A stretch of DNA of 43,424 nt from a virus: positions 1-43,424 of the IMG/VR virus record IMGVR_UViG_3300020171_001620; one strand, 5' to 3'. Position numbers and translations under genes: made by a program. Positions 11,825 to 35,382 of this stretch are shown here, piece after piece (the first letter of the stretch is position 1; every line of letters begins with the position of its first letter). The notes under the pieces were generated by a model. It searched no databases and had not been told where the DNA came from. It saw only the letters and a list, made by a program, of their open reading frames with translations.

Positions 11825-13104
11825 GCAAACTCCTCTAAAAATATCTTAGTATTAATAATCCCGAACAAAAATTTATTTTCTTCTCCAGTTAGATTTTGTT
11901 TAAATATTAATAATCTTACTTTATCCTTGTCGATAAAATCCCATATATCGCTATTATTAAAAAACCAATTTAAATTTCTTTTGTCAGTCATATCAAATAA
12001 TTCTCTTAATTCTACATTGAATCCTATTTTCTGTCTATTATCTAATATAAAATCTGGTATAATTCCTTTCATTGCATTTCTTAATATTGCTTTACTATAT
12101 CCATTTCTTAAAAGATATTTTGTTGGAATTTTATTTGCAAATTCAAATAATTCTTTATCTATAAAAGGTGATTCTCCTTTTAATAAAAAATATTCTGCAT
12201 TACTTCCTTCCTGTTTTAGCGCAAGTGGAATCGTCTCATTAAACATTTCATTTAACATTCTATTTCTTAGATTATTACGTGAATAAATCGACTCATAAAA
12301 ATCTTCTTTCCAATTAACAAGTAAATATTTTTCAAAATCAAAATAAAGATGTTTTCTAAAATATGGATTTTCTTCAAATAAAACAAAATCTTGTAAATAT
12401 TGATTTCTAATATTTGGAAGTATATAATTTATCCAATCTTTGAAAACTATTCTATATTCTGAAATATTATTTTTTTTCAATTCTGATAAATAATAAAGCC
12501 AATGATCATAATATCCTGCAAAAAGTTCATCTCCGCCCTCTCCACTTACTACGACACTATATCCTTCTTTATTTATTTCTCTCAGCATGAGCCAGTGGAC
12601 ATAATAGCTTATTGTGGCCAATGGGAATTTATGATGTTTTATTATAGTTTTTAGATTATTTATAAAATTGCTTTTATCCAAATTTATAAATTTATGCTTT
12701 ATCTTATATTCATTAACAACTTTGTTTACTATTTCTGATTCATCATATTTTTTATCTTTGCTTGTAATTGTAAATCCACATATATTTTTATAACTTAAAA
12801 CATTTTTTACAATACCTAAAATAGAATTTGAATCAATACCACCGCTTATACAAAAAGCAATATCATCATTTCTGTTCAGCTTATTTTCTATGGATTCGAT
12901 TAAAAGATTTTTAACTCTTTTTAAACAATAATCAAATGATAAATTTTCATCAGTAATATATTTGTTTTTGTCATCTAAAAATGGCAATAAATCATCTTCG
13001 ATAACTTCTTTGAAAAAAGATTCTTGCTTATTTTTATAAAGGCTTTTATATCCATTTATCAAGTATCTAAATAGTTGATTATAATTAATTTCATATTCCG
13101 GCAT
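11821..13104 (-). CDS. Asparagine-synthase-like amidotransferase domain protein
   Basis: A 427-aa protein carrying the AsnB C-terminal PP-loop ATPase: 'CISGGIDSNSILG' (SGGIDS at 87-92), 'KDKKYDESEIV' and 'SGEGGDELFAGY'. The N-terminal glutaminase domain with its catalytic Cys is absent, so it should use ammonia or a partner for nitrogen, or act as an adenylating ligase. It is typical of glycan clusters (WbpG/PglA-like amidation). It overlaps the carbamoyltransferase by four bases and the GNAT gene by 14. Confidence 0.85.
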   Translation of the reverse strand: MPEYEINYNQLFRYLINGYKSLYKNKQESFFKEVIEDDLLPFLDDKNKYITDENLSFDYCLKRVKNLLIESIENKLNRNDDIAFCISGGIDSNSILGIVKNVLSYKNICGFTITSKDKKYDESEIVNKVVNEYKIKHKFINLDKSNFINNLKTIIKHHKFPLATISYYVHWLMLREINKEGYSVVVSGEGGDELFAGYYDHWLYYLSELKKNNISEYRIVFKDWINYILPNIRNQYLQDFVLFEENPYFRKHLYFDFEKYLLVNWKEDFYESIYSRNNLRNRMLNEMFNETIPLALKQEGSNAEYFLLKGESPFIDKELFEFANKIPTKYLLRNGYSKAILRNAMKGIIPDFILDNRQKIGFNVELRELFDMTDKRNLNWFFNNSDIWDFIDKDKVRLLIFKQNLTGEENKFLFGIINTKIFLEEFA

Positions 13105-13831
13105 TAATATTTTCTCCAGTATGAAGATGAAAAATACTTTTCATTTCTACCAATTCACATCCAAAAGACTTATATAAATTTACAGCAGGTAAATTAGATG
13201 ATTGAGTTCCAACTTTTTTATCAATAAATTGAACTGCATTAATAAAAGTCTCTATTAATAACGATGCAACGCCTTTGTTTCTATAACTTTTTTCAACTAC
13301 TATGAGATCAATTACAACTTTACTTTCATCAAACATTGACAATAAAAATCCAGCCGGAATATTATTATTCAAAGCAATAAATACACAATCCCCTCTAAGT
13401 CCTGTTACATAGCTTTCAGCCCATTCTCTTTTTATTTTATTTGCTGTTTCATTATCAATAAATTCATCCTGATGAAATCTTGAATTAGAAAAAGAAGTCT
13501 CTGCTATTTCTAAAATCTTATCTTTATATTTTATAGGAATAGAATCAAAAGAAACAATATTAAAATTTTCATTTTTTTCATTGCCTTTATCTATATTTTT
13601 ATCTGGAAATTTATATCTAAATTCAAGGTCAATATATATAAATCCCTTCTTTACTAAAGCCTCTCTTAGTCCAAAAAGATATATAGAATCATTAATTTTA
13701 GTATAATAAAATGCTTTTCTATCATTAGTTATTATATCCAAATCTTCTTTTTTGAAATGGCTATCAAATTCAATTTTGAAAGTATCTTTTTTTAATAAAT
13801 TTGATAGCCAAGTGTCTTTTGTTATTTGCAT
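13091..13831 (-). CDS. GNAT N-acetyltransferase
   Basis: A 246-aa protein whose C-terminal half (about 110-240) is a GNAT fold. 'VEKSYRNKGVASLLIETF' matches the acetyl-CoA loop (Q/RxxGxG/A) and 'NLPAVNLYKSFGCELVE' is the closing motif. The N-terminal half, about 100 aa, is an extra domain as in WecD-type sugar acetyltransferases. It likely N-acetylates an aminosugar. It begins 13 bases beyond the small repeat array. Confidence 0.8.
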   Translation of the reverse strand: MQITKDTWLSNLLKKDTFKIEFDSHFKKEDLDIITNDRKAFYYTKINDSIYLFGLREALVKKGFIYIDLEFRYKFPDKNIDKGNEKNENFNIVSFDSIPIKYKDKILEIAETSFSNSRFHQDEFIDNETANKIKREWAESYVTGLRGDCVFIALNNNIPAGFLLSMFDESKVVIDLIVVEKSYRNKGVASLLIETFINAVQFIDKKVGTQSSNLPAVNLYKSFGCELVEMKSIFHLHTGENINAGI

Positions 13832-13843
13832 TTTATTTATTTA

Positions 13844-14033
13844 AAATACGCTCATCCTCAATAGTTTTCTCTATTTTTGTAGCTCGCTCAATTTCAATAG
13901 ATTTCTCACAAATCTTAGCTCACTCCAACTTCATAGTTTTCTCTATTGCCTTAGTACACTCTTGTCATATAGTTTTCTCTTATTCAGTAGTTCGCTCTTA
14001 AACGATAGTTTTCTCATAGCCTATAGCTCATTC
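13844..14033 (-). repeat. TIGR-like array 2 (36-nt period, degenerate)
   Basis: About 5.3 periods of exactly 36 nt. On the plus strand one 10-nt repeat (TAGCTCGCTC type) starts at 13844 (degenerate), 13880, 13916, 13952, 13988 and 14024. The other (TAGTTTTCTC type) starts at 13862, 13898, 13934, 13970 and 14006. Between them lie ten 8-nt spacers, all different, e.g. tatttttg, caacttca, tattgcct, ttaaacga. Several repeats carry point changes (TAGTACACTC, TAGATTTCTC, TAGCTCATTC), so this array looks older than array 1. On the minus strand it begins five bases after the tas-like stop codon, so it is probably transcribed as the 3' end of that message. Confidence 0.88.
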
Positions 14034-14038
14034 ATTTT

Positions 14039-14791
14039 TTATGCTGCTTTTCTATTATGTTCTCTTCCCAAATATTCTTCTGCATAAGGTTTTCTTACTG
14101 GCAGCCCTTCTATTTCCCGCCATGCAACATATAAATCTATCAAAAACATTTTAATCATTATTCGTATAGCATCATTATGGCGATGACTTTTTGTAGCATC
14201 CTTCCATGCTATTAATTTAGCTTTTTCTCCCTTTTTACTTATTTCCCAAACTTTTTCATTACTATTTTCTGTTCTCATTTTTCTATTATAATAATAGCCT
14301 GTATATGGAACAGATTTACATTGAAGAAATAACGAACCAAGTACACCACATAATTTACTTTTAAGAAATTGATTATATTTACATTTTTGACCTTTTGTTT
14401 TTTTGTCCTTACCTGGCGCAAGTCCAGCAAATGATATTAAATTACTTGCAGCAGGAGCTTTGTATATATCAAATTGACTAATAATTACGGCGGCCATTAC
14501 TGGGCCACATCCCTTAACAGTATCTCGTAAAAATCCAGTCCATAAAGGATGATCTTGAATAAGCAAGGTAATTTCTTTTTCCATAATTTTTTCTGCATTA
14601 GAAATTTCATTTCTCCTATCTTGAAGATAAACTAACATAGCGAGATCACGCATAGGGGCTTTCTTTTTAATTGTTCCATCTTTTTTTTGTCCCAAACGAT
14701 TATCCATGGCAATTCTTTCATATTGATAATCATAATATGCCCTTATGGAAATCCCTAAAGATGTCAACATTTCATCTGTAAATTTTTTCAT
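14039..14791 (-). CDS. tas: Nop-only Tas-like protein (IS110 Transposase_20-like, nuclease-less)
   Basis: A 250-aa protein. Residues 1-90 are helical, probably coiled coil. Residues 91-225 match the C-terminal Transposase_20 part of IS110/IS116/IS902 transposases: 'VKGCGPVMAAVIISQFDIY' (HhH-like), 'ASNLISFAGLAPG', then 'AIRIMIKMFLIDLYVAWR'. The N-terminal DEDD/RuvC domain of IS110 enzymes is absent. Where the family has its catalytic Ser-Gly after GLAP, this protein reads DKKTKGQK, so transposition looks impossible. Two 36-nt-period arrays flank it. Known TIGR-associated (Tas) proteins carry a Nop domain related to box C/D snoRNP proteins and IS110, with or without HNH or RuvC; this fits a nuclease-less Tas. 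It overlaps the ParB-like gene by ATGA. Confidence 0.75.
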   Translation of the reverse strand: MKKFTDEMLTSLGISIRAYYDYQYERIAMDNRLGQKKDGTIKKKAPMRDLAMLVYLQDRRNEISNAEKIMEKEITLLIQDHPLWTGFLRDTVKGCGPVMAAVIISQFDIYKAPAASNLISFAGLAPGKDKKTKGQKCKYNQFLKSKLCGVLGSLFLQCKSVPYTGYYYNRKMRTENSNEKVWEISKKGEKAKLIAWKDATKSHRHNDAIRIMIKMFLIDLYVAWREIEGLPVRKPYAEEYLGREHNRKAA

Positions 14792-15480
14792 GCCACCACC
14801 TCGCTTTCTATAATTGCAGCTTGTATAGCTTCCATTAATTCTTTCAATATGGCTATTTCATTAGGAGTTAATGGGAAAGCATTTGCTCTTAAAGCATTAA
14901 GCAATAATCTTGCATTAACGATAGGCAACATTCCATTTGCTGTTCTTGCATAGGTCTCTTGTTTTTTAGTTAATTTTTTACCCGCTAAATCCATTGCTCC
15001 AGCAGATAAAGCAATCTTTTCTCCTTCTTGAGTAACCGCTGTGCGCTTCTCTTCGAACTGTTTGATTTTTTCTTTTGTCATACCAAGGATTTCGCCTATT
15101 TTAGCAAGAGGAATTTTCTTTCTTCTGGCAGTTAAGATTACATATACTTTATCTTTTGGTGATAATGGTAATCCGTGAACAGTATTTAAACGAGCTGCTT
15201 CAAGAAACATTTCTATTTCATTAGCATATTCACGAAACTCAACATCAACTATTGCATCATTTCCATAAAACAATAAAGTTGCTTGATGCCGATGAAATCC
15301 ATCTATAATTCTAAAACTTACTTTATCCGCAATAATTGGGTCTTTAAATTTACTTCCTGATCTTAACACCTCCTTTAATTTTGAAACATTGGTTGAATCT
15401 AATTCATTTGCTTCATGCCTTGGCCACAAACTCCAATCTTTAATTAATTCTAATGCCTTTACTTGTGTTATTTCTCCCAT
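14788..15480 (-). CDS. ParB/Srx-fold protein with helix-turn-helix, Tas partner
   Basis: A 230-aa protein. Residues 1-85 form a ParB/sulfiredoxin nucleotide-binding domain with the signature 'RIIDGFHRHQATLL' (57-70, matching GxxRxxA). Residues 105-150 contain a KorB/ParB-type helix-turn-helix ('IPLAKIGEILGMTKEKIKQFEEK'). A C-terminal helical region follows. AAGGAA precedes the ATG at 15480. It is the first gene after array 1 and overlaps tas by four bases, so the two proteins are made together. No ParA gene is near, so plasmid partition is unlikely. It may bind the array DNA, regulate tigRNA transcription, or act as a nucleotide-driven effector on target DNA. Confidence 0.8.
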   Translation of the reverse strand: MGEITQVKALELIKDWSLWPRHEANELDSTNVSKLKEVLRSGSKFKDPIIADKVSFRIIDGFHRHQATLLFYGNDAIVDVEFREYANEIEMFLEAARLNTVHGLPLSPKDKVYVILTARRKKIPLAKIGEILGMTKEKIKQFEEKRTAVTQEGEKIALSAGAMDLAGKKLTKKQETYARTANGMLPIVNARLLLNALRANAFPLTPNEIAILKELMEAIQAAIIESEVVA

Positions 15481-15499: not shown

Positions 15500-15543
15500 G
15501 TCCCATACGGGACTTTTATATTACTTCTTTCATACGAAAGAAG
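15500..15543. promoter_or_regulatory. Two hairpins with the same ATAC loop between array 1 and parB-like gene
   Basis: GTCCC-ATAC-GGGAC lies at 15500-15513 and an 8-bp perfect stem CTTCTTTC-ATAC-GAAAGAAG at 15524-15543. Both have the same four-base loop closed by C-G, and on the transcribed minus strand the loop reads GTAT in both. No T-run follows in the direction of transcription, so these are not classic terminators. They could be processing sites separating array RNA from the mRNA, or palindromic operators for the ParB-like protein. Confidence 0.6.
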
Positions 15544-15574: not shown

Positions 15575-15980
15575 TAGTTCGCTCGTTAATATCAGTTTTC
15601 TCTTTGTATTTAGCTCGCTCAGCGACTGTAGTTTTCTCTTATTATATAGCTCGCTCTTTCATAGTAGTTTTCTCAGCTCAAGCAGCTCGCTCGCTTTTCG
15701 TAGTTTTCTCCCAATATCTAGCTCGCTCCAGAAACATAGTTTTCTCAGCTATGATAGCACGCTCTCTGCATTTAGTTTTCTCTATCAGAATAGCTCGCTC
15801 CAGAAACATAGTTTTCTTTCGTTTTTTAGCTCGCTCTATTTTTTTAGTTTTCTCGAGAGGTGTAGCTCACTCTTTGACTTTAGTTTTCTCAGTCAGGATA
15901 GCTCGCTCCTTTAAATTAGTTTTCTCATCTTTGATAGCTCGCTCGGACATAATAGTTTTCTCAACCACGATAGCTTTTCA
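15575..15980 (-). repeat. TIGR-like array 1 (36-nt period, dual repeats, 8-nt spacers)
   Basis: Eleven exact 36-nt periods plus a degenerate end. Plus-strand TAGCTCGCTC copies start at 15575, 15611, 15647, 15683, 15719, 15755, 15791, 15827, 15863, 15899 and 15935, with a decayed copy at 15971. TAGTTTTCTC copies start 18 nt after each, at 15593 through 15953. The 22 spacers are each 8 nt (e.g. agcgactg, ttattata, gcttttcg, gagaggtg, aaccacga); cagaaaca occurs twice (15729, 15801), both times in the same half of the unit. Read on the minus strand the unit is GAGCGAGCTA-N8-GAGAAAACTA-N8. A promoter-like block lies directly upstream on that strand. The period equals the 36-nt dual-spacer tigRNA of TIGR-Tas systems. 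Confidence 0.92.
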
Positions 15981-15990
15981 GTTCCCATTC

Positions 15991-16038
15991 TCTTTAATCT
16001 TATTATATATTATTTTTTAAAAATTTTTGAAATTATTT
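15991..16038 (-). promoter_or_regulatory. Promoter-like block driving array 1
   Basis: On the minus strand this reads AAAAAATAATATATAATA followed by AGATTAAAGA. The TATAAT lies at 16007-16002, so a transcript would start near 15995, fifteen bases before the array. Three near-identical blocks occur at 16231, 32287 and 39871, each just after a stop codon. The function is inferred from the repetition and the TATAAT match. Confidence 0.65.
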
Positions 16039-16052
16039 TCAAAAACAGGATA

Positions 16053-16172
16053 TTATTTTGACGACCTCCTGGTATTAGCATAAATAAGATGCAATGGTAT
16101 TGTAATAATCAAACCAAACAATCCGAACAAAATTGCAACTATATGTAATATTATAAAAATAAAATGACCCAT
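16053..16172 (-). CDS. Small membrane protein, 39 aa
   Basis: MGHFIFIILHIVAILFG... is one long hydrophobic helix with a basic C-terminal tail (RRSSK). An AGGAG site lies eight bases before ATG 16170-16172 and a promoter-like block lies just upstream at 16231-16280. It belongs to a recurrent type of short phage membrane protein. Its role is unknown. Confidence 0.6.
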   Translation of the reverse strand: MGHFIFIILHIVAILFGLFGLIITIPLHLIYANTRRSSK

Positions 16173-16230
16173 TTTTCATTCTCCTATTTTAAAAATCTTA
16201 TCATAATATATTTCTAAATTCCTTTCTCAT

Positions 16231-16280
16231 TCTCTTTAATTCTATTATATATTATTTTTTCAGAATTTTTGAAATTATTT
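16231..16280 (-). promoter_or_regulatory. Promoter-like block (copy 2)
   Basis: The minus strand has the same AAAAAATAATATATAATA core followed by GAATTAAAGAGAATG. The TATAAT-like hexamer is at 16249-16244. It lies between the stop of the epimerase gene (16282) and the 39-aa membrane protein start (16172). Confidence 0.6.
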
Positions 16281-16281
16281 T

Positions 16282-17277
16282 TCATTTTGCTAAAAAATCT
16301 TTATACCAACCAATATATTTTATAATTCCATCGTCAATAGGATATTCAGGACTATATCCAAGCAGCTTCTTAGCTTTGTCAATATTCAAAGTACCTCTAT
16401 ATGGCACAAGTTTATCCCTTTTCTTATACTGAAATTTAATTGCAGCAAATTCCTTTCTTAATATATCAACTACATCCAATAATTTTCTTGATTCTCCATA
16501 AGTTAAATTAAATGTTTCTCCGTATGCTTTCTCGTTTCCTATCATCAAACATATCCCATTTACAAAATCATCAACATAAGTAAAATCAAGTTTTTCCTGT
16601 CCATCTCCTTGAACAAAAATAGTTTCATCATTTAAAATATTTTCAATAAATATCTGAACTACTCTTCTGCTTATACATCTCTCCCCATACAAAGCTGATG
16701 GTCTTACAATGGTATAATTAAAATCATCAAATATTTGACTATATGCCTTTACTAATAATTCTCCTGATATTTTTAATGCACCGTATATTCCAATCGGATC
16801 TAAATTATCATCTTCCTTTACTTCTTCTGATTGAAAATTGCCATACACCATACTGGATGAGAAATATATAAATTGCTCAACTGTTTTATAAGAAGCATCA
16901 AGGGCATTTTCAAGCGTTCGCAAACTGTGGTCAAAAGTTGAATAAGGATCTTTATTTGATCGATTTGCATGGGAAACAGCGGCTAAATGGATAACCACTT
17001 CTGGCTTAAACTCACTTATTGAATGAGATAGTAAATGATAATCTCTTGCGTCAGTACAATCCAGCTCTATTCCTGCTTCTTCTATTAATTCAAGCCTTTT
17101 TTTAATAAAAGAAAAATATAAATCTCTATTTGGAATATCACGCTTACTAATTAAATAGCCAAAATTATTAACCTGCAAATTATCAACAATTTTCACGACA
17201 TAACCAAGTAAATTTAGATGAAGACTCAAGTGATGCCCTAAGAATCCAGCTCCGCCAACTAATAAAATTCTTTTCAA
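16282..17277 (-). CDS. NAD-dependent sugar epimerase/dehydratase (extended SDR)
   Basis: A 331-aa extended short-chain dehydrogenase: 'LVGGAGFLGHHL' is the GxxGxxG NAD site at 6-17, 'HLAAVSH' follows, and 'YGALKISGE' is the YxxxK catalytic pair. Family length is normal. It would act on an NDP-sugar (GalE/RmlB/Gne class). Its ATG overlaps the stop of the intein-bearing aminotransferase gene (17274-17277), so both may act on one intermediate. Confidence 0.88.
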   Translation of the reverse strand: MKRILLVGGAGFLGHHLSLHLNLLGYVVKIVDNLQVNNFGYLISKRDIPNRDLYFSFIKKRLELIEEAGIELDCTDARDYHLLSHSISEFKPEVVIHLAAVSHANRSNKDPYSTFDHSLRTLENALDASYKTVEQFIYFSSSMVYGNFQSEEVKEDDNLDPIGIYGALKISGELLVKAYSQIFDDFNYTIVRPSALYGERCISRRVVQIFIENILNDETIFVQGDGQEKLDFTYVDDFVNGICLMIGNEKAYGETFNLTYGESRKLLDVVDILRKEFAAIKFQYKKRDKLVPYRGTLNIDKAKKLLGYSPEYPIDDGIIKYIGWYKDFLAK

Positions 17278-19268
17278 TTAATATTCTCCTTTATAGTTTC
17301 AATAATATAATTCAAATTATTCTTAGTTATATGCGGCCCGATTGGCAAACATAATGAATTATTAGCTATATTCAAAGCATTCTGGAATCTAATTTTTTGA
17401 AAACCATATTTTTTTTGATAGAAAGAAAATTGATTAACCGGATGAGGATAATAAATGCTACATCCAATCTCGTTTTCTTTGAATACATTTAACATTTTTT
17501 CTCTAATCTCGTTGCTTTTATATACGACGCTCAAACAATAATAAGACTTCATTCCATGATCGTTATAAATAATTCTATCTATGTTCCCGAATGCTTTATT
17601 CTCATCTCTTAATTTTTCTATACCGTTTTTCAAGTAATAGAAATTGAATTTTCTTGTTTCTAAATTTTTTTCTATTGATTGCATCTGACAAAATCCAAGA
17701 GCTGCCTGCAATTCACTCATTCTATAATTTAATCCAAGCTTATCTATATCATATTTAAAGCCAGTACTATCATCAGATTTTCCAAAAGCTCTTATACTTT
17801 TTGCTTTTTCAAAAATATCTTTACTATTCGTTGTAAACATGCCTCCCTCACCGGTAGTAATATGCTTACATGGATAAAAACTAAAGCAATTATGAACTGC
17901 TACATTAGCAACAAAATAACTATGGTCATCTTCTATTTCTAAATTATATACTTTTCTTTTACTTTTATATTTTTTTTCAATACTTTTTATAGGGACATAA
18001 ATTAAACCTAATTCATTATCAACATAATATTCTTTATTATTTTTACGTTTATTTTTTTCTTTTTTGGGATAAACCCAAACAATATCATCATAATAAGATT
18101 TAAGTTTCTCTGAATATTTAGTTATTTTTCTTTTTCTTGGCAATTTATTCTCGACTTCAATAGCTATTACTTGATTATCTTTTATGGCTATTATATCCGG
18201 AATCGCTATTCCAATTGGAATAATTCTATACCCTTCCTTCTCATATTTTTTAGCTACTGGTAAAATATCCTTATAATAATGTTTAAATTTAGACGTAATA
18301 TAATTTGACTCCTTTTTTCTATCCTTAACTTTTGAAATTTTATCACCAACTCCTTTTATTTGGGCAGGATTACAATATTCGCATATCTGCCAATAAAAAG
18401 GGATAATTTTCCCGCATACTTTGCACTTAGAAGTTCTTATATAGCAATAATCTGTTTTTTTATTTAAATCTTTTATCAATACCCATTTTTTTTCTCCATT
18501 CCTATTTACTAAAATTGGATGTTCTTCTGTAGCATTTAATGTTCTATTTCTCCAGCCAGCAGTATTACTCATCCCATCTAATTTTAAATTATACCAATAT
18601 CCAGAATAATATCTCATATATGTCTTTGTAACTTTTTTATATCTATTTTTATGCGTTAAAACTTCATCCCCAATATTTACTTTTGATATTGGTAATAAAC
18701 CTTTCTTTGTCGAAATCTTTGCTCTGCAATCAAAACAACCCACATCTGATAGAGTTCCAGTATGATTTCCTTCTATATCTCTTGCCCCTAATGATAAAGC
18801 ACAATCCTCTATTACTTTCAAATCATAGTCATTTACTATTTCCATTATTTTTTTCATGTTATTTGGAATGCCTAAAAAATGTACCAGGGAAATAGCTTTT
18901 GTTTTATTGGTTATATTTTTTTCAATCTGATAAATATCAATATTTCCATCAACACCATTACAATCAATAAATATAGGAGTTGCTCTAACTAATTCTACTG
19001 CATGAACTGTTGCTACATGAGTCATAGCAGGAACTATAACTTCATCTCCTTCTTTTATTCCTAAAACCAAATAAGCCAGATGAAGCGCTGCCATACATGA
19101 ACTAACCACAAGACAATATTTTGCTTTTGTAAATTTTCTAAATTCTTCTTCAAATTTTCTGCATTGTTCTCCATCGGTTAATTTTGTTTGATTCAACAAT
19201 ACATTTTTTATATATTCTGCATCTTGTTTTCTTATATTTGGAATTGCAAAAGGTATAATTCTTTTCAT
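17274..19268 (-). CDS. DegT/DnrJ/EryC1 aminotransferase with intein
   Basis: A 664-aa precursor. Residues 1-177 and 461-664 join into a 381-aa sugar aminotransferase: 'VVSSCMAALHLAY', 'VIEDCALSLGAR' (PLP Asp region) and, after the splice point, 'CFSFYPCKHITTGEGG' with the Schiff-base Lys at precursor residue 468. The intein splits the sequence just before this loop, so the enzyme should be inactive until splicing. Probable role: amination of a keto-sugar nucleotide, together with the epimerase downstream. A free-standing homing endonuclease gene lies directly upstream. Confidence 0.9.
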   Translation of the reverse strand: MKRIIPFAIPNIRKQDAEYIKNVLLNQTKLTDGEQCRKFEEEFRKFTKAKYCLVVSSCMAALHLAYLVLGIKEGDEVIVPAMTHVATVHAVELVRATPIFIDCNGVDGNIDIYQIEKNITNKTKAISLVHFLGIPNNMKKIMEIVNDYDLKVIEDCALSLGARDIEGNHTGTLSDVGCFDCRAKISTKKGLLPISKVNIGDEVLTHKNRYKKVTKTYMRYYSGYWYNLKLDGMSNTAGWRNRTLNATEEHPILVNRNGEKKWVLIKDLNKKTDYCYIRTSKCKVCGKIIPFYWQICEYCNPAQIKGVGDKISKVKDRKKESNYITSKFKHYYKDILPVAKKYEKEGYRIIPIGIAIPDIIAIKDNQVIAIEVENKLPRKRKITKYSEKLKSYYDDIVWVYPKKEKNKRKNNKEYYVDNELGLIYVPIKSIEKKYKSKRKVYNLEIEDDHSYFVANVAVHNCFSFYPCKHITTGEGGMFTTNSKDIFEKAKSIRAFGKSDDSTGFKYDIDKLGLNYRMSELQAALGFCQMQSIEKNLETRKFNFYYLKNGIEKLRDENKAFGNIDRIIYNDHGMKSYYCLSVVYKSNEIREKMLNVFKENEIGCSIYYPHPVNQFSFYQKKYGFQKIRFQNALNIANNSLCLPIGPHITKNNLNYIIETIKENIN
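17889..18737 (-). mobile_element. Intein with PD-(D/E)XK-like domain and zinc ribbon
   Basis: The intein is 283 aa. It starts CFDCRAKISTKKG-LLPISKV (block A), has 'NATEEHP' (block B, TxxH) and ends 'DHSYFVANVAVHN' before Cys+1, so all splicing residues are present. The central part lacks LAGLIDADG and HNH motifs. Instead there is a CKVC...CEYC zinc ribbon (about 105-122), then 'IPDIIAI' and 'IAIEVENK' (180-198), which match a PD...ExK nuclease core. Insertion is between Gly177 and Cys461 of the host enzyme. Confidence 0.85.
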
Positions 19269-19283
19269 TTTTTTATCTCTTTA

Positions 19284-19967
19284 TTAATATTCATAATTCT
19301 GTTTTATTACTGTTCTGTATATTTCTTTCCATTCATCGCGATTGAAATTCGCTTTACAATTACATGATCTACAATTTGAAATTAAATTTTCAAAAGTACA
19401 GTTCTTCTTGTCATAGTCAATGTGATGAACGCCCAAAGGATTGTTCCTGGTAATAGGTTTCTCGCAAAATGGAGTCATGCATTTATAATTGTCTCTTTGT
19501 TTTATGAATTCCTTCAGGTCTTTGGTAAATTCAAAGCAGTATGGCTCAAGCGAAGTTCCACCACGCCACATATGGCTATCTTTACCGCAATACTTACCTC
19601 TCTTACCTTTAGATATTTTTTGGCATGTTTCAATAGTATGTTTTCTACCTTTTTTAGATTCTGATATTTTCTGTTTTGTTTCTTCAGAAAGTTTTTTGCT
19701 ATAATTAGGGTGTTTGTTATTGATTCTACCAAACATAGGGTGATTTTTACCAGTTATACCAAACATAGGATTATTTTCGCCTTTTAAAGCTTGTGATATT
19801 TTTCTTTTTGTTTCTTTTGTATGTTTTTTACCAAAATTAGGATTCTTTTCGCCCATGTTTGCCTTGCTCATTTTTTCAAGCGTTTCCTCAGAAAAAATAC
19901 GCCCTAATAATACTTTAGATCTTTTTCTTTTATGTTCTTCTGTTTGTTTATATCCTTTTTTTGGCAT
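19284..19967 (-). CDS. NUMOD3-HNH homing endonuclease
   Basis: A 227-aa protein. The first 130 residues hold repeated NUMOD3 units ('SEET..K.S.A..G..NPMFG', at least five). The C-terminus is an HNH domain ('YKCMTPFC...GVHHIDYDKKNCTFENLISNCRSCN'). It is closely similar to the 24976 gene, especially in the last 90 residues. It sits 15 bases upstream of the intein-bearing gene and probably mobilises itself or a neighbour. Role in phage growth: none expected. Confidence 0.92.
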   Translation of the reverse strand: MPKKGYKQTEEHKRKRSKVLLGRIFSEETLEKMSKANMGEKNPNFGKKHTKETKRKISQALKGENNPMFGITGKNHPMFGRINNKHPNYSKKLSEETKQKISESKKGRKHTIETCQKISKGKRGKYCGKDSHMWRGGTSLEPYCFEFTKDLKEFIKQRDNYKCMTPFCEKPITRNNPLGVHHIDYDKKNCTFENLISNCRSCNCKANFNRDEWKEIYRTVIKQNYEY

Positions 19968-34734: not shown

Positions 34735-35382
34735 ATTTCTTCCTTATGATATTACTATAAAGATTTTCATAATATTCTCTATATTTCTTATTTTCAGCTC
34801 TCATATTACAACTATGACATAAAGAAATTAAATTCCAAGGATTACAGTCTTTCTTAATATGATTGATATGATGGAGGCATAACTTATGATTAGGATTGCA
34901 GTCTCCCTTGCAATGTGGATTCTGACAAGTATTATTGTCTCTGTCTCTTATGCTCTACTTGTATTCTTTATCCATCCATATTTCGCAATAAGGTTCACAT
35001 GATATCCCGCCTTTCCAATTCCAATGAAGTTCGCCTGTTGTTTTTTCAGATGCTCTTCTTCTACTTTCATCGTTTTCTTTAGTCCTACCATATAAAGGAT
35101 TATTTTCCCTTGTTCTACCAAACAAAGGACTATTTTCACCAGAAAAATCAGCATGATTTTCAGACATTTTTAATTTTGTTGCTTCAGTGTGCTTCTTTCC
35201 AAACATATAATTTTTTTACCAGTTCTGGATTTAGACATCTTTTGTTTTGTTTCATCAGTATGTTTATGACCAAACATAGAATGCCTTTTCCCTATTTTAC
35301 CATACCAAGGATTATTCTCCCCAGTTTTAGCTCTACACATTTTTTCTATTGATTCTAATGTATGTTTTGATCCCTTTATCAT
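34718..35382 (-). pseudogene. Broken NUMOD3-HNH homing endonuclease
   Basis: NUMOD3 repeats start at 35382 (MIKGSKHTLESIEKM...). A frame break occurs at an A7 run (35217-35211); one more A would give GKK-NYMFGKKH. NUMOD3 repeats then continue to an in-frame TAG at 34955-34957. The same frame goes on with a full HNH part (CQNPHCKG...CLHHINHIKKDCNPWNLISLCHSCN) to TAG 34718. So there are one frameshift and one nonsense codon. The 3' end overlaps the start of the intein-bearing gene. Confidence 0.85.

What the first reader, a model, noticed from the sequence alone, without database searches (positions are those of the whole stretch)
13844..14033. Second, degenerate array at the 3' end of the tas message
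It has the same period and repeats as array 1 but more mutated repeats, and it starts five bases after the tas stop codon. Two arrays bracketing the genes could mark an old and a young guide set, or one array may regulate tas mRNA.
Basis: seen in the sequence. Interest (0 to 1): 0.75.

Follow-up and report, generated by a model that had tools for sequence, protein, structure and literature searches.

The report
Second TIGR guide-RNA array after tasA
The repeats just after this phage gene are a second, probably working, set of short guide-RNA units for a known type of RNA-guided DNA-binding system; their apparent mutations compensate one another instead of breaking the units, so this is a well-preserved example of a recently described system and not a decayed leftover.

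Summary
Observation confirmed. On the minus strand, 14033-13844 is a TIGR dual-repeat array: five complete 36-nt units (10-nt edge, 8-nt spacer A, 10-nt loop, 8-nt spacer B), beginning 5 nt after the tasA stop. It is far beyond chance. Its edge repeats are more mutated than those of array 1, but it is not degenerate where it matters: all five units keep both Watson-Crick pairs that join one edge repeat to the next in a mature tigRNA, and the variant edges are compensated (A7 of edges 2 and 3 with T4 of edges 3 and 4). Uncompensated decay lies only in the outer half-edges, which no tigRNA contains. In ~85 related loci the same inter-repeat covariation exceeds all 2000 shuffles.

The effector is a TasA with a TasParB partner, a combination and array layout already described (PMC12045711). 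An array abutting the tas stop occurs in 36 of 59 Tas lineages; in 16 the stop codon lies inside the first edge repeat. 'Old versus young array' is not supported as a rule. No tigRNA targets its own phage above chance (422 units, 27 records), so guides probably point elsewhere. New member of a known kind.

The parts
13844..14033 (-). Array 2 (the finding): TIGR dual-repeat array of 5 complete 36-nt units plus a closing half-edge; edge consensus GAGCGAGCTA, loop consensus GAGAAAACTA, 8-nt spacers
14024..14033 (-). Edge 1, GAATGAGCTA: 5' half decayed (in no tigRNA), 3' half intact
13988..13997 (-). Edge 2, GAGCGAACTA: A7 pairs with T4 of edge 3
13952..13961 (-). Edge 3, GAGTGTACTA: T4 pairs with A7 of edge 2; its own A7 pairs with T4 of edge 4
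13916..13925 (-). Edge 4, GAGTGAGCTA: T4 pairs with A7 of edge 3
13880..13889 (-). Edge 5, consensus GAGCGAGCTA
13844..13853 (-). Edge 6, GAGCGTATTT: closing truncated edge; 5' half GAGC intact, 3' half decayed; several relatives also end in GAGCGT-type half-edges
14039..14791 (-). tasA, 250 aa, solo Nop-domain Tas protein, no nuclease domain
   Evidence: Pfam Transposase_20; profile hits TasR 9mty 2.8e-23 and TasH 3.1e-22; AlphaFold2 model pLDDT 91 matches TasH TM 0.81 and TasR TM 0.68-0.69
14788..15480 (-). tasParB, 230 aa, overlaps the tasA start by 4 nt
   Evidence: PHROG ParB-like 3.9e-5; AlphaFold2 model pLDDT 92 matches ParB/Noc/KorB, best E 1.5e-6; relatives also precede tasA
15575..15980 (-). 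Array 1: 11 complete tigRNA units between the promoter-like site and tasParB
16002..16031 (-). Promoter-like site (TTCAAA-18-TATAAT) just before array 1; possible start of the whole transcript
   Evidence: consensus match only; number of such sites not above shuffles
13091..13831 (-). GNAT acetyltransferase, 12 nt after array 2; no terminator-like site between, so array 2 probably lies inside a polycistronic message

Best explanation
Array 2 is a preserved TIGR guide array of a phage TIGR-TasA/TasParB locus. Inferred steps: it is transcribed as the 3' untranslated part of the array1-tasParB-tasA message; TasA-dependent processing cuts each edge repeat in the middle and releases five 36-nt tigRNAs, severing the tasA message a few bases after its stop codon; each tigRNA closes through two pairs between the 3' half of one edge repeat and the 5' half of the next, and a TasA dimer uses its two 8-nt spacers to bind one strand each of a ~16-bp DNA target. 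With no nuclease domain, the complex probably binds or bends DNA and brings TasParB to it, on DNA other than the phage's own. Shown here: the array, protein family and fold, gene order, inter-repeat pairing and its covariation, and absence of self-targets above chance.
For: Array anatomy. All ten inter-edge pairs of array 2 are Watson-Crick. In 755 units of ~85 loci, pair 7(n)-4(n+1) is Watson-Crick in 727 versus 698 +- 3.5 after within-locus shuffling, and 8(n)-3(n+1) in 621 versus 601 +- 3.3; none of 2000 shuffles reach either; control position pairs show no excess. Downstream arrays alone show it: 468 versus 448 +- 3.1. Of 22 units where both positions deviate from the locus majority, 19 are Watson-Crick. 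Changes in array 2 avoid the boxes (P 0.003). Box C is CTA in all ten array-2 repeats and in nearly all of array 1, but mainly CCA in the nearest relatives, so both arrays follow one recognition rule. TasA profile and fold match TasR/TasH. PMC12045711 shows processing mid-edge into 36-nt tigRNAs, Tas dependence, two-strand targeting, and tasParB-tasA operons with arrays upstream, downstream and between. No self-targets above chance in 27 records: 6 units at >=15/16 versus 6.9 in permuted pairs.
Against: No RNA data; expression and processing in this phage are inferred. In the window alone only two units carry a compensatory change (by my count, the chance that both A7 fall opposite a T4 is about 0.025); the strong statistics come from the family. 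Units copied mid-edge to mid-edge would also correlate neighbouring half-edges, though not specifically as complementary pairs. No target was found, so DNA binding in trans and any role of TasParB are inference. Promoter-like sites are no commoner than in shuffles.
Confidence: 0.78

Rival explanations
1. Decaying relic: array 2 is an old guide set no longer processed, with array 1 the active one.
For: Internal edge repeats carry more changes than array 1 (5/40 versus 3/100, p 0.043); fewer units; no promoter-like site of its own on that strand.
Against: All ten inter-edge pairs intact, changes compensated and confined to linker positions, boxes untouched, loops as good as in array 1. Box C matches array 1. 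No general tendency for downstream arrays to be more mutated.
Confidence: 0.12
2. Regulatory 3' end: the array mainly serves as a processing site that lets Tas protein trim or destabilise its own message, or separates tasA from the GNAT/asparagine synthase/carbamoyltransferase genes downstream; the guides are secondary.
For: The array starts within 60 nt of the tas stop in 36 of 59 lineages, mostly within -7 to +7 nt; in 16 the stop codon lies inside the first edge repeat, with its 3' half still able to pair. Processing needs the Tas protein (PMC12045711). No terminator-like site between array 2 and the next gene.
Against: Placement is equally explained by compact phage genomes. Downstream arrays hold up to 30 units with rapidly changing spacers, more than a cleavage site needs. 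The RNA is not unusually structured (z -0.38).
Confidence: 0.2
3. Self-targeting partition or packaging mark: tigRNAs guide TasA and TasParB to the phage's own genome, an RNA-specified parS.
For: A ParB-fold partner encoded in the same operon.
Against: No tigRNA of the window has a target above chance in the window, nor do 422 units in 27 phage records (6 versus 6.9 expected). Records are partly fragments.
Confidence: 0.05
4. Chance repeats or a coding repeat, not a guide array.
For: An ORF of 66 codons crosses it on the plus strand.
Against: Lag-36 identity 0.63 versus 0.322 +- 0.042; pattern matches expected 0; same layout beside Tas genes in dozens of relatives.
Confidence: 0.01

Closest known systems
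TIGR-TasA with TasParB (Faure et al., PMC12045711, fig. S14 and methods section on parB-like genes)
   Same: tasParB-tasA operon, solo Nop protein, 10-nt edge and loop repeats, arrays upstream and downstream of the genes, occurrence in phages
   Different: Box C reads CTA where the nearest relatives found here mostly have CCA; edge repeats of the downstream array vary more, with compensation
IMG/VR record of locus L016/L002 (nearest relative found, TasA 60-62% and TasParB 67% identical)
   Same: Array upstream of tasParB and array immediately after the tasA stop; same repeat plan
   Different: A third array between tasParB and tasA; no shared units (best 10 of 16 spacer letters)
TIGR-TasR and TIGR-TasH (PDB 9mty; 21kl, 9w04 and others)
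   Same: Nop-domain fold (TM 0.68-0.81), dual-repeat arrays, inter-edge pairing as described for TasR
   Different: No RuvC or HNH domain in the 250-aa protein; 8-nt spacers; repeat boxes differ
CRISPR arrays
   Same: Repeat-spacer guide arrays next to an effector gene, spacer turnover
   Different: Two alternating short repeats, two half-spacers per guide, no adaptation genes seen nearby, unrelated effector
IS110 transposases with bridge RNA
   Same: Shared domain (Pfam Transposase_20) and related fold
   Different: No DEDD catalytic domain; associated with arrays, not a single bridge RNA; transposon ends not searched

Membership tests
TIGR-Tas system, TasA type | Nop-domain Tas protein | tested here: met
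   Profile hits TasR 2.8e-23 and TasH 3.1e-22; model matches TasH TM 0.81, TasR TM 0.68-0.69; tblastn to Salicola phage CGphi29, the TasH phage, 4e-12
TIGR-Tas system, TasA type | Dual alternating 8-12-nt repeats with short spacers, 36-nt unit, next to the tas gene | tested here: met
TIGR-Tas system, TasA type | Array begins with a 5' truncated edge and ends with a 3' truncated edge | tested here: met
   GAATGAGCTA and GAGCGTATTT
TIGR-Tas system, TasA type | Rho-independent terminator after the array (typical, not obligatory, in the paper) | tested here: not met
   None seen after array 2 by a simple consensus scan
TIGR-Tas system, TasA type | Inter-edge base pairs supported by covariation (described for TasR) | tested here: met
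TIGR-Tas system, TasA type | No nuclease domain (TasA rather than TasR or TasH) | tested here: met
   250 aa, only Transposase_20 found; fold covers the Nop part
TIGR-Tas system, TasA type | Processing into 36-nt tigRNAs and RNA-guided DNA binding | not testable with these tools
   Needs RNA and binding experiments
tasParB-tasA subtype | parB-like gene in operon with tasA, arrays around both | tested here: met
   4-nt gene overlap, ParB fold, same order in relatives
CRISPR-Cas | Single 25-36-nt repeat and Cas proteins | tested here: not met
   Two 10-nt repeats; no Cas family among the seven neighbouring proteins scanned
IS110 transposon | DEDD catalytic domain and transposon with bridge RNA | tested here: not met
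   Only the C-terminal Transposase_20 part is matched; the protein is closest to Tas folds; transposon ends were not searched

The most novel reading that the evidence does not exclude
Downstream TIGR arrays double as a built-in feedback device: because the first edge repeat abuts or contains the tas stop codon, every round of tigRNA maturation cuts the tas message at its stop codon, so guide production and Tas synthesis are coupled, and in this phage the cut also separates tasA from the downstream metabolic genes.
Probability: 0.15. Interest if true: 0.62.

Novelty: new member of a known kind. Interest (0 to 1): 0.42.

Why it matters
TIGR systems without a nuclease (TasA) have no known function, and their arrays come almost only from metagenomes. 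This locus shows how to tell a preserved array from a decayed one: read edge changes across neighbouring repeats, not within one. The family comparison gives three checkable constraints: the pairs joining successive edge repeats apply to TasA arrays; guides do not point at their own phage; arrays begin at the tas stop codon, often inside it. Half-unit spacer sharing within loci (24 and 31 pairs versus about 6 expected each) bears on the open question of how dual-spacer arrays grow.

Tried and rejected
Self-targets in the window and in 26 other phage records under two spacer orders with gaps of 0-4 (two more orders in the window only): none above permuted pairs. Cross-targets among all fetched DNA: 9 versus 9.0 and 6 versus 7.0. 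Search for other phages with the exact repeat pair: none. tasParB in phage records and tasA in plasmids: none. Kin of a virus record cannot be drawn. Special RNA folding of array 2: z -0.38. 'Downstream arrays are older' as a rule: no consistent direction. A twelfth unit of array 1: both inter-edge pairs fail, so 11 units.

Full report
What is there. The window is a 43,424-bp virus record from IMG/VR. On the minus strand the order is: promoter-like site, array 1, tasParB, tasA, array 2, GNAT acetyltransferase, asparagine synthase, carbamoyltransferase. Array 2 runs from 14033 to 13844 and holds five 36-nt units of edge repeat (GAGCGAGCTA), 8-nt spacer A, loop repeat (GAGAAAACTA) and 8-nt spacer B, with an incomplete edge at each end. 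Identity at lag 36 is 0.63 against 0.322 +- 0.042 in the rest of the window, and the full repeat pattern has no match outside the two arrays.

What the protein is. The 250-aa product has the Pfam Transposase_20 domain. A profile of it and seven relatives finds the solved TasR and TasH proteins (2.8e-23, 3.1e-22). Its AlphaFold2 model (mean pLDDT 91) matches TasH at TM 0.81 and TasR at 0.68-0.69, and IS110-family recombinases more weakly. It has no nuclease domain, so it is a TasA. The upstream gene overlaps it by 4 nt and its model matches ParB, Noc and KorB. Faure et al. [quoted passage not shown] The locus is therefore a member of a known kind, and two arrays bracketing the genes are expected.

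Is array 2 degenerate? Counted repeat by repeat, its internal edges carry more changes than those of array 1 (5/40 versus 3/100, p 0.043); its loops do not. A mature tigRNA runs from the middle of one edge to the middle of the next (PMC12045711), so the meaningful unit is the 3' half of edge n with the 5' half of edge n+1. Read that way, all five units keep both pairs, 7(n)-4(n+1) and 8(n)-3(n+1), as Watson-Crick pairs. Edges 2 and 3 have A at position 7, edges 3 and 4 have T at position 4, and these face each other. Within one edge, edge 2 would be mispaired (C4-A7). The remaining decay is in the 5' half of edge 1 and the 3' half of edge 6, which belong to no tigRNA. All six changes in internal repeats fall in linker positions and none in 54 box positions (P 0.003).

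The family test. I collected TasA relatives from IMG/VR and GTDB genomes and parsed 843 distinct units, 755 with a parsed next edge. Pair 7(n)-4(n+1) is Watson-Crick in 727 and standard in 741; within-locus shuffling gives 698 +- 3.5 and 726 +- 1.9. Pair 8(n)-3(n+1) gives 621 and 744 against 601 +- 3.3 and 733 +- 1.8. No shuffle of 2000 reached these values; position pairs 6-5, 9-2 and 10-1 show no excess. Downstream arrays alone show the same. This extends to TasA arrays the pairing that the TasR structure showed. Caution: related loci are not independent, and unit copying could correlate neighbouring half-edges; but of 22 units that deviate at both positions, 19 are complementary. In the window alone the support is modest (about 0.025 by my count).

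Concerted change of box C. All ten repeats of array 2 and nearly all of array 1 end in CTA, whereas the nearest relatives mostly have CCA. Both arrays thus follow one recognition rule, which argues against array 2 being a leftover from before that change.

Position. Clustering Tas proteins gives 59 lineages; in 36 an array starts within 60 nt of the tas stop, mostly within a few bases, and 14 have arrays on both sides (lower bounds, since three units were required). In 16 lineages the stop codon lies within or touches the first edge repeat, and in all of them that edge can still make its 7-4 pair. If processing is mid-edge, the tas message is cut at its stop. Genome compaction is a sufficient explanation; feedback is the more interesting one.

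Old and young sets. Among loci with both arrays the downstream one is sometimes more, sometimes less mutated. Between phages with ~98% identical tas DNA the spacers differ widely while some runs of units are shared. Within loci, single spacers recur with a different partner spacer (24 and 31 pairs versus about 6 expected), and one relative (L013) has the same spacer A in both its arrays. Arrays are being reshuffled, so position is no simple clock.

Targets. Under the rule of PMC12045711 (spacer A pairs with one strand, spacer B with the other, gap 0-2) I derived the order A + reverse complement of B from the cleavage geometry and also tested the opposite order. No excess over permuted A-B pairs exists in the window or in 27 phage records with 422 units (6 versus 6.9), nor across all fetched DNA. 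Guides of 16 nt cannot be assigned in a collection the size of IMG/VR. The self-marking idea is disfavoured; targets in other elements or hosts remain possible but unseen.

Verdict. Array 2 is very probably a functional TIGR array encoding five tigRNAs, part of an already described system subtype. What is shown here is anatomy, homology, fold and covariation; expression, processing, target binding and the job of TasParB are inferred.

Noticed in passing
window 15977-16039 and 16219-16281: 63-nt direct repeat, 89% identical, each copy with a TTCAAA-18-TATAAT promoter-like site on the minus strand, one just before array 1 and one before a small ORF.
   Followed up: partly
window 15500-15513 and 15524-15543: Two palindromes with a common CATACG core between array 1 and the tasParB start (GTCCCATACGGGAC; CTTCTTTCATACGAAAGAAG); candidate operators or RNA hairpins.
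   Followed up: no
window about 16060-16178, minus strand: Small ORF that, read by eye, encodes a hydrophobic ~39-aa peptide (MGHFIFIILHIVAILFGLFGL...), possibly a superinfection-exclusion-like membrane protein.
   Followed up: no
window 17274-19268, minus strand: DegT-like aminotransferase apparently interrupted by an intein (GCFDCRAKIS... to ...VANVAVHN, then CFSFYPC).
   Followed up: no
window 15719-15818 (array 1, units 5 and 7): The same spacer B, TGTTTCTG, occurs with two different spacers A, an instance of half-unit reshuffling seen across the family.
   Followed up: partly
L033-L042 (IMG/VR loci): Phages with ~98% identical tas carry largely different TIGR spacers with shared runs, near-duplicates and an (AG)n expansion inside one unit of L039.
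   Followed up: partly
window 19706-19769 and 35073-35137: Two short tandem repeats of period 30 that share the letters ACCAAACA, unrelated to the TIGR repeats.
   Followed up: no
L041: Distant relative whose arrays use GAGTGAATTA edges and GAGAAAACTA-like loops: another non-CCA box C type.
   Followed up: no
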